A stretch of DNA of 32,208 nt, from contig JASGMW010000009.1 in assembly GCA_030156225.1 (NCBI GenBank), forward strand, positions 1 through 32,208. The letters are read 5' to 3'. How positions within the stretch are numbered: the stretch's first letter is position 1; each line of letters begins with the position of its first letter. A program made the position numbers and the translations under genes. The notes under the pieces were generated by a model. It did not search any database. It was not told the origin of the DNA and saw nothing but the letters and a program-made list of their open reading frames with translations. Origin of the DNA: Methanofollis sp. (GTDB taxonomy: Archaea; Halobacteriota; Methanomicrobia; Methanomicrobiales; Methanofollaceae). Below, in pieces: positions 1 to 32,208 of this stretch.

Positions 1-98
1 CAACCTGGAGATGCAGGGGTGCAGTCAGCCACCCGGACGAGAACTATCGACATGATACAGTCTCAAGCCCCGTCCACACAGGCGCGGGGTCGTTGACA
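1..98 (+). repeat. Terminal copy A of a dispersed repeat; possible right end of an IS200/IS605 (TnpB-type) element
   Basis: Positions 1-98 match the reverse complement of 32111-32208 with one mismatch (position 58). Contains CCCCG-N12-CGGGG hairpin arms near the inner end. Frame 2 reads NLEMQGCSQPPGRELST*, which could be the tail of a transposase. Confidence 0.8.
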
Positions 99-333
99 CG
101 CCGGCGATCTCTGGCCGGCATGAGATGGAGCATGGTTGAGGGGGACGGCCCGGGATCACAGGGTTCAGGCATCATCCCGGCCGCAACCGTTGTGCGAATG
201 GTCCTGCTCTTCTCCTCGTATCGCGAGCCTGAACGTTGCGTTCCCTGATCCCTTCCGCCCGCAAAAAAATCCTGCGGACCGGGGCAGAGTATTTCAGGGA
301 GCGGACCAGACATAGGGAACAGGGCACTCCCGG

Positions 334-11835: not shown

Positions 11836-13032
11836 ATGGCCATTGATACGGGTGACACGGCATTCGTACTCGTCAGCACCATCCTCGTAATGCTGATGAC
11901 CCCGGCCGTCGGACTTTTCTACGGCGGCCTTGTCAGGCGCAAGAATACCATATCGATGATCGCCCTCTCGTTCATCGCATTTTCCCTGGTTACGGTGCAG
12001 TGGATGTTCATCGGCTACACCCTCGTCTTCGGCACCGACATCGGCGGATTCATCGGCGGCCTCGACCACCTCGCCCTCGCGGGTGTCGGCATGGACGGCG
12101 ACGGCATACCGGACCTGCTCTTCATGGCGTTTCAACTCACCTTCGCCGCGGTGACCCTCGCCATCGTCACGTCGGGTGCGGCCGAACGGGTGAAGATCAG
12201 TTCCTTCATCGTCTTCGGGCTGCTCTGGACGACGCTGGTCTACGACCCCATCGCACACTGGGCATGGGGCGGCGGATGGGCCCGGACCATGGGGGTGCTC
12301 GACCTTGCCGGCGGGATGGCCGTGGAGATCTGCTCGGGATTCGCAGCACTCGCCCTCTGCCTTGTGATCGGCAAGAGGGCCGGTTACGGCATGTATTCGA
12401 TGGAACCGCACAACATCCCGATGACCCTCATCGGCGGCGCACTGCTCTGGTTCGGGTGGTTCGGCTTCAATGCGGGAAGCGTGCTTGCCGCCAACGGTGC
12501 GGCGGCAAACGCCCTCGTCACCACCAATGCCGCGGCCGCAGCCGGGGCGCTTGCCTGGCTCTTTGCCTCCTGGTACCGGGGCAGACCGAGTTCGCTCGGC
12601 ATGATCTCGGGCGCCATCGGCGGCCTTGTCGCCATCACGCCCGCCGCAAGTTTCGTCGACCCGATGGGGGCGCTCGTCATCGGGGCCGTTGCAGGCCTGT
12701 TCTGCTACGGGGCGATGCTCCTGCGCATCCGTCACAATCTCGACGAGAGCCTTGACGCATGGGCCATCCACGGCGTCGGGGGACTATGGGGCACCGTGGC
12801 CACCGGCATCTTTGCAGTGGCGGCGGTCGGCGGAACGGCAGGCCTCCTTTCCGGAAACCCCGGGCAACTCCTCATCCAGATCGTCGCCGCCGTCGCCGCG
12901 ATGGTATACGCGTTCGGCATGACCTACCTCCTCGCAACAGGAGTGGACCGGCTGATGGGGCTGCGGGTGAGTGAAGAGGAGGAGTATGTGGGGCTGGACA
13001 TTGCCCAGCACGGTGAATCGCTCCAGATGTAA
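11836..13032 (+). CDS. amt: Ammonium transporter Amt paralog (Amt2) with Glu at the first twin-His position
   Basis: 398 aa Amt; [35 protein letters not shown]; the segment aligned to Amt3 GTVVHISSG reads GMAVEICSG. Confidence 0.95.
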
Positions 13033-30987: not shown

Positions 30988-31101
30988 GTGAAGTACCGCA
31001 CCATCCGCAGTAAGAACCTCCTCTCTCTGAATAAGCCAGAATCGCAAGATCTTTGTAATTTCAGCGAAAAACCCCTTTTATGCCCCTCGTCAACGGTTTC
31101 G

Positions 31102-31527
31102 ATGACCGCTCAAGATCGTTCAATCCTCTCGATCGGTCATCACGGCATTGTCGCCGGTGCCTACGACTCTCTTTGCATCGCCGATGTGATCGATACCGCT
31201 CTCCCAAAGACCCGTCACCATCATCTCAGCCATTCTCAGGTCATCAAGGCAATGGTGGTTCTCAACGGTCTCGGGTTCATCGAAGTCTCTCCCTATTTCC
31301 CGGACTTCTTTGACGATATCGCTGTTGAACGTCTCCTTGGTGAAGGCATCACGAGCGAGCACCTCAACGACGATGTGCTCGGCCGAACCCTGGACGCGGT
31401 CGCGGCCTACGGCCCGACCGAGTTATTCAACGAAGCCGTTGCACAACCCCCCGATCATCCTCAATTTCACCTGGTTATAACCCGCCAAAAACATACCTTT
31501 GTGCCTGGTTATAACCCCTCGAAGTAG
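31102..31527 (+). pseudogene. Truncated IS1634/DUF4277-like transposase N-terminus
   Basis: MTAQDRSILSIGHHGIVAGAYDSLCIADVIDTALP...VIKAMVVLNGLGFIEVSPYFPDFFDDIAVERLLGEGITSEHLNDDVLGRTLDAV; stops after about 140 codons, no DDE region. Confidence 0.8.
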
Positions 31528-31528
31528 C

Positions 31529-32110
31529 ATGGCCGATCTCCTCGCACTCCTGGTCGCCCTCAACCCCTGGTGGAGCGGCAGAGACTTCGACACCGGCGTC
31601 CGGCGTGACCGCTACCTCTCGACGATCAAAAAATATTGCGCCACCGGTGAGATCGTGGTGCTCAGCGGCGTCCGGCGCTCGGGCAAGACCACCCTGCTCT
31701 ACCAGGCGATCCGCAGCCTGATCCACGAACTGGGCGTCGACCCGCGATCGATCCTCTTCGTCAACTGCGACGAGCCCGCCCTCGCCCGTCTGGACCGGCC
31801 GCTGGAGGCGGTGCTCGACGCCTACCGGTCGAACGTCTGGAGCGGAGAGGGGGCCTGGCTCATCTTCGACGAGATTCAGACAATCGCCGGATGGGAGCGT
31901 TGGGTCAAGGCAACCTATGACCGCAAACAGTTCAGGCTGGTGATATCGGGGTCTTCTTCGTATCTTCTCGATGCCAAAGGTCTCGACCCTGATCAGCGGG
32001 AGATATCTGGCGGTCCAGGCTATCCCCTTGACTTCTCAGATGTATCTCCTCTTTCACGGGATAGAGGTCGGAGCCGACCCGATCGCCATCGCCGCCCGGA
32101 AGTATGATAT
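31529..32110 (+). pseudogene. AAA-type ATPase (AAA_14/DUF4143 type), frameshifted and truncated by the terminal repeat
   Basis: Walker A LSGVRRSGKTTLLYQ, Walker B WLIFDEIQTI, VISGSSSYLLDAK; the family continuation STLISGRYLAVQAIPL...YLLFHGIEVGADPIAIAARKYDI appears in another frame from about 31980 and runs into the repeat at 32111. Confidence 0.82.
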
Positions 32111-32208
32111 TGTCAACGACCCCGCGCCTGTGTGGACGGGGCTTGAGACTCTATCATGTCGATAGTTCTCGTCCGGGTGGCTGACTGCACCCCTGCATCT
32201 CCAGGTTG
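32111..32208 (-). repeat. Terminal copy B of the same repeat, inverted relative to copy A
   Basis: Reverse complement equals 1-98 except one base; begins TGTCAACGACCCCGCGCC immediately after the interrupted ATPase reading frame. Confidence 0.85.

What the first reader, a model, noticed from the sequence alone, without database searches (positions are those of the whole stretch)
1..98. Window bounded by inverted copies of one repeat; possible TnpB element right ends with readable guides
1-98 and 32111-32208 are inverted copies, 97/98 identical, marking contig breaks at a multicopy element. The unit ends CCCCG-N12-CGGGG-TCGTTGACA, resembling the hairpin right end of IS200/IS605-type elements. 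The reading frame into it could be a TnpB C-terminus. If so, both contig ends are right ends and the adjoining unique DNA gives the omegaRNA guides: 99-118 (CGCCGGCGATCTCTGGCCGG) and the reverse complement of 32091-32110 (ATATCATACTTCCGGGCGGC).
Basis: partly seen in the sequence, partly recalled or inferred. Interest (0 to 1): 0.6.

Follow-up and report, generated by a model that had tools for sequence, protein, structure and literature searches.

The report
Right ends of a TnpB-only transposon
Both ends of this archaeal contig stop inside copies of one small jumping gene that carries an RNA-guided DNA cutter (TnpB), and its relatives show exactly where it jumps in (after TTCAA) and hence which neighbouring DNA it should use as its address; this is a well-behaved new example of a known kind.

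Summary
Window 1-98 and 32111-32208 are inverted copies (97/98), and 16 contig ends of this Methanomicrobiales-type assembly stop in the same sequence. They are outward-facing right ends of one IS200/IS605-family element of the IS1341 (TnpB-only) type. Frame 2 of the 98-mer is the TnpB C-terminus (NLEMQGCSQPPGRELST*). Full copies in relatives are 1.30 kb and encode a ~390-aa TnpB that scores as guided_TnpB. There are no terminal inverted repeats, no target duplication and no DDE transposase. Empty sites in two relatives read TTCAA directly before the base that follows GTTGAC here, so TTCAA is the insertion target and predicted TAM. The flank is therefore the expected guide. The 5' edge of the 98-mer is only the assembler's overlap length. 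The window's right end interrupts an ATPase gene that is intact in a relative. The one odd point is a right-end hairpin (CCACACAGGCGCG) shared by two different TnpB families here and found in none of 99 other genomes of the order. Expression and cutting are untested.

The parts
1..97 (+). Right-end portion of the TnpB-only element (3' end of tnpB plus 3' untranslated right end), ending ...GTTGAC
   Evidence: 16 contig ends share it; complete copies in relatives end at the same base
2..55 (+). Last 17 codons and stop of tnpB (NLEMQGCSQPPGRELST*)
   Evidence: Same peptide follows the TnpB zinc-ribbon domain on contigs C73 and C47 and in full-length TnpBs of relatives
63..96 (+). Right-end foldback: TCAA (63-66) pairs with TTGA (93-96) around hairpin 68-89; predicted 3' stem-loop of the omegaRNA scaffold and TnpA right-end signal
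   Evidence: RNA fold; one pair in the foot (C-G to G-C) and two in the hairpin change on both sides among 16 right ends
98..117 (+). Predicted guide of the left-hand copy: ACGCCGGCGATCTCTGGCCG (flanking DNA, upstream of a PiT/PHO4 phosphate transporter gene)
   Evidence: First bases after GTTGAC; guide role inferred from the empty-site logic; no empty site found for this copy
32112..32208 (-). Second copy of the right end, same structure, facing the unique DNA
32154..32207 (-). Last 17 codons and stop of tnpB in the second copy
   Evidence: sequence, mapped from 2-55
32120..32141 (-). Right-end hairpin CCCCGTCCACACAGGCGCGGGG of the second copy
32092..32111 (-). Predicted guide of the right-hand copy: AATATCATACTTCCGGGCGG
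   Evidence: Empty sites in two closed relatives have TTCAA directly before the homologous base (L146, L147)
31499..32111 (+). N-terminal part of an AAA_14-type ATPase gene interrupted by the right-hand copy (also frameshifted)
   Evidence: Pfam AAA_14 E 1.8e-25; the relative's 445-aa gene runs intact across the site

Best explanation
The contig ends are right ends of a recently amplified, roughly 1.3-kb IS1341-type (tnpB-only) member of the IS200/IS605 family. It inserts without target duplication 3' of TTCAA, presumably mobilised in trans by a Y1 TnpA acting on single-stranded foldback ends. The transcript's 3' end (tnpB C-terminus plus right-end stem-loop) would be the omegaRNA scaffold, and the next ~16-20 nt of host DNA its guide. 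When an excised copy rejoins TTCAA to that flank, TnpB would cut there (TAM plus guide match) and repair from a sister copy would restore the element. Shown here: element type, boundaries, TTCAA target, flank position, in-frame TnpB C-terminus, paired right end. Inferred: trans-mobilisation, RNA production, guided cutting, retention.
For: TnpB C-terminus in frame and TnpB zinc ribbons upstream of the same right end on C73 and C47. Full 1.30-kb copies in relatives with ~390-aa TnpB; NF040570 guided_TnpB 202 bits, cut-off 100; PDB TnpB/Cas12f matches down to 1e-24, with D, E and D of RuvC at the expected GVD, LED and AD motifs. All 16 left ends examined are preceded by TCAA, 14 by TTCAA. Empty sites: gcaggTTCAA|AATGTCG in two relatives at the window's right-hand site; CTCAA at a second site; TTCAA at a third, seen from the left end. 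No TIRs. Right-end pairing covaries. Y1 TnpA intact on another contig, C79. TnpB reading a right-end RNA whose 3' ~16 nt come from the flank, with a TAM equal to the target, is established for ISDra2 (PMC8612924), and a 3' stem-loop next to the guide is the conserved feature of typical TnpBs (PMC10278001).
Against: No complete copy of the amplified variant is assembled in this genome, so its TnpB may carry unseen damage. The one complete older copy seen (C73) has a broken reading frame. Empty sites come from other species, so guide and site differ at several bases. No Rfam family matched. No RNA or cleavage data.
Confidence: 0.9

Rival explanations
1. The amplified copies are non-functional or tnpB-deleted derivatives (MITE-like) that keep only the ends; TnpB and guide are not in use.
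For: Interiors of amplified copies are not assembled; mini-elements with left end fused to right-end tail exist here (C98, C100) and in G004; C74 and C90 keep only the last codons and the right end.
Against: The tnpB C-terminal codons are open in the 16 near-identical right ends, and the better-assembled left-end contigs carry the leader and run into the start of tnpB.
Confidence: 0.2
2. A DDE transposon or MITE with terminal inverted repeats; the hairpin is part of a TIR.
For: A 34-bp terminal stretch recurs in other elements in the genome, which at first sight resembled a TIR.
Against: Those 34-bp matches are right ends of a second TnpB family. Left end (CTAACTCCGCAAGG) and right end (reverse complement GTCAACGACCCC) do not match; no target duplication at the empty site.
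Confidence: 0.01
3. Assembly or adapter artefact duplicated at contig ends.
For: The 97-98-base length is an assembler overlap.
Against: The sequence continues inside contigs and in other species' closed genomes as part of a gene-bearing element.
Confidence: 0.01

Closest known systems
IS1341-type TnpB-only elements of the IS200/IS605 family (copies in Methanoculleus and Methanogenium genomes)
   Same: Gene content, foldback ends, target-adjacent insertion; the Methanoculleus TnpBs are ~90% identical to the full-length TnpB of a relative (G004) that was used as query
   Different: The amplified variant here has a CACACA-type right-end hairpin and TCGTTGAC tail instead of the CTTCAGG loop and TAGTTGAC
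ISDra2 TnpB of Deinococcus radiodurans (PMC8612924)
   Same: RNA made from the 3' end of tnpB and right end, guide from flank, TAM equals insertion target
   Different: ISDra2 carries its own TnpA and uses TTGAT; this element has tnpB only and TTCAA
SisTnpB1 and solo TnpBs of Sulfolobus islandicus (PMC10640517)
   Same: Archaeal TnpBs, with and without TnpA; TAM read from left-end flank
   Different: TAM TTTAA or TTTAT there; TTCAA here
Second TnpB family of the same genome (right end ...GAAGCAGGAAGCCACGCC...GTAGTTCAC, contigs C79, C99, C64 and others)
   Same: IS200/IS605 type, same hairpin block in 12 copies
   Different: Different TnpB, right end TTCAC, one copy (C79) with intact TnpA

Membership tests
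IS200/IS605 family, IS1341 group (TnpB only) | Encodes TnpB (RuvC plus zinc ribbon) | tested here: met
   Full copies in relatives: NF040570 202.6 bits, PDB TnpB/Cas12f matches. In this genome shown for C- and N-terminal parts and older copies only
IS200/IS605 family, IS1341 group (TnpB only) | Subterminal hairpins at both ends, no terminal inverted repeats | tested here: met
   Left and right hairpins; terminal sequences not inverted copies
IS200/IS605 family, IS1341 group (TnpB only) | Insertion 3' of a fixed short target without target duplication | tested here: met
   TTCAA before left ends and in empty sites
IS200/IS605 family, IS1341 group (TnpB only) | No tnpA in the element; Y1 TnpA supplied in trans | tested here: inconclusive
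   No room for tnpA in the 1.30-kb copies; Y1 TnpA on C79; trans action not shown
OMEGA / RNA-guided TnpB system | omegaRNA ending in flank-derived guide is made | not testable with these tools
   Needs RNA-seq
OMEGA / RNA-guided TnpB system | RuvC catalytic D, E, D present | tested here: met
   GVD, LED and AD motifs align with solved TnpB/Cas12f, in a relative's copy; not in the amplified copies
DDE insertion sequence with TIRs | Terminal inverted repeats and target duplication | tested here: not met

The most novel reading that the evidence does not exclude
Two distinct TnpB families in one genome have come to share one right-end hairpin (CCACACAGGCGCG), either by exchange of right ends or because both were captured by the same trans-acting TnpA. 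The exchange would have altered the omegaRNA scaffold as well as the transposition signal and coincided with amplification.
Probability: 0.35. Interest if true: 0.5.

Novelty: new member of a known kind. Interest (0 to 1): 0.33.

Why it matters
It shows that element type, exact boundary, target/TAM and guide of an RNA-guided nuclease can be read from contig breaks plus relatives' empty sites. It gives at least 16 native guides and a predicted TTCAA TAM for a methanogen TnpB; a library search for TnpB with TTCAA found no paper (figures not searched). The shared hairpin offers a testable case of how tnpB-only elements attach themselves to a TnpA. Otherwise the biology is that of known TnpB elements.

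Tried and rejected
TIR hypothesis from the 34-bp terminal matches: rejected, these are right ends of a second TnpB family. Joining the window's right-hand right end to its left-end partner: the left flank of the relative's site was not found in the assembly. Rfam: no relevant family. No empty site found for the left-hand copy, whose first ~200 bases of flank had no match in the genus. Paper searches for the retention study and for Methanoculleus elements gave little; one query was malformed.

Full report
OBSERVATION. The window is contig C63 of a 1.79-Mb, 100-contig assembly. Its first 98 bases and the reverse complement of its last 98 differ at one base, position 58. The same sequence, 98-100% identical, is found at 16 contig ends; five diverged copies (82-91%) lie inside contigs. 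Aligning the 16 ends shows identity up to GTTGAC and then unrelated bases. The element therefore ends at base 97, and the shared A at 98 is coincidence. Contigs run only 95-100 bases into the right end (one, C10, runs 126), and several left-end contigs stop about 97 bases in. The inner edge of the 98-mer thus reflects assembler overlap, not biology.

ELEMENT. Frame 2 of the 98-mer reads NLEMQGCSQPPGRELST* with its stop at 53-55. On contigs C73 and C47 the same peptide, with small changes, follows a TnpB zinc-ribbon domain (PF07282), directly before the same right end. A search of 100 relatives found matches in 18 genomes (this tally counts the window's own genome). Complete copies span about 1.30 kb and hold one ORF of ~390 aa. 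It scores 202.6 bits against NF040570 guided_TnpB (cut-off 100). It matches solved TnpB and Cas12f chains at E down to 1e-24, with RuvC acidic residues in place. No tnpA lies in the element. Y1 TnpA genes occur elsewhere in the assembly: intact on C79, broken on C62, a fragment on C83. The element is thus of the IS1341 (TnpB-only) type. Named relatives of the TnpB are in Methanoculleus, Methanogenium and Methanofollis records.

ENDS AND TARGET. The left end reads TTCAA|CTAACTCCGCAAGGAGT followed by a hairpin. Among 16 left ends tabulated in this genome (including C36, a palindromic mini-element), all are preceded by TCAA and 14 by TTCAA. Because all copies share it, TCAA could have belonged to the element; empty sites decide. 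At the window's right-hand copy, two closed relatives (G004, G002) read gcaggTTCAA|AATGTCGTATTTTCTGGCGG where this genome has GTTGAC|AATATCATACTTCCGGGCGG. A second site (C39) gives CTCAA in both relatives, and a third, seen from the left end of C14, gives TTCAA in both. A weaker set (C41 flank) gives ATCA before the junction and is ambiguous by one base. Nothing is duplicated, and the two ends are not inverted repeats of each other. TTCAA is therefore the insertion target and, by the rule found for ISDra2 (PMC8612924) and used for Sulfolobus TnpBs (PMC10640517), the predicted TAM.

GUIDES. The predicted guides begin directly after GTTGAC: ACGCCGGCGATCTCTGGCCG (98-117) and AATATCATACTTCCGGGCGG (reverse complement of 32092-32111). 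The right-hand insertion interrupts an AAA_14 ATPase gene whose homologue in G004 is a 445-aa ORF running across the site. In this genome the gene remnant is also frameshifted. The left-hand copy lies upstream of a PHO4-family phosphate transporter.

RIGHT-END STRUCTURE. The end folds as TCAA(63-66):TTGA(93-96) around a hairpin at 68-89. On 16 distinct right ends of both TnpB families, 94.9% of cells pair, against 33-55% when partners are slid, and three pairs change on both sides. One of these is the C-G to G-C change in the foot that separates the TTGAC and TTCAC families. The number of pairs changing on both sides is not unusual against shuffles (264/500); the number of such cells and the covariation score are (0/500), and relatedness inflates these. 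In IS608, right and left cleavage sites pair with guide tetranucleotides 5' of the hairpin (PMC5934647); the foot pairing seen here has a similar placement. A 3' stem-loop within 10 nt of the guide is the conserved feature of typical TnpB omegaRNAs (PMC10278001).

ODD POINT. The hairpin block CCNCACAGGCGCGKGG followed by T[AC]GTT[CG]AC occurs 29 times in this genome: 17 times with the TTGAC tail and 12 with TTCAC, two different TnpB families. It occurs in none of the 99 other genomes of the order searched. Older copies of both families here, and those in relatives, mostly have CTTCAGG or CTTTAGG loops; a related AACAGG form occurs at ends in some relatives. Exchange of right ends or convergence on one trans-acting TnpA are both possible. 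The only intact TnpA-bearing copy assembled (C79) has the ordinary loop, so the likely helper is not identified.

MECHANISM AND LIMITS. The best reading is a trans-mobilised TnpB-only element whose TnpB, with its flank-derived guide, would cut the rejoined donor site TTCAA plus flank and so restore the element by repair. Boundaries, target and coding content are shown. RNA production, cutting and retention are inferred from characterised TnpBs. The interiors of the amplified copies are not assembled, so intact TnpB in them is not shown.

VERDICT. This is a new member of a known kind, with one unexplained hairpin-sharing pattern worth a follow-up.

Noticed in passing
G000 contigs C98:12409-12447 and C100:19442-19481; G004:C1:1031237-1031275: Mini-elements of about 45-50 bp: left-end leader fused to one hairpin and the right-end tail TAGTTGAC, preceded by TCAA (C98) or TTCAA (C100) in the two copies read. 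PATE/MITE-like derivatives.
   Followed up: partly
G000 contig C36 about 11979-12042 (L111): Palindromic element made of two opposed left ends around one hairpin, in a site whose relatives keep TCAA.
   Followed up: partly
29 places in G000, including window 74-97 and 32112-32135: Right-end hairpin block CCACACAGGCGCG shared by two TnpB families and absent from 99 other genomes of the order.
   Followed up: partly
L053 (contig C79) 417-2160: IS605-type element with intact-looking Y1 TnpA (HYH motif) and a TnpB whose reading frame is split, right end ...GTAGTTCAC.
   Followed up: partly
window 30988-31527 (+): ORF with a DUF4277 domain, which I recall as the N-terminal part of IS1634-type transposases, next to the interrupted ATPase gene; probably another transposon remnant.
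   Followed up: no
C74:4951-5047, C90:4165-4259: Solo right ends keeping only the last tnpB codons, hairpin and flank; could be relics or stand-alone guide sources.
   Followed up: no
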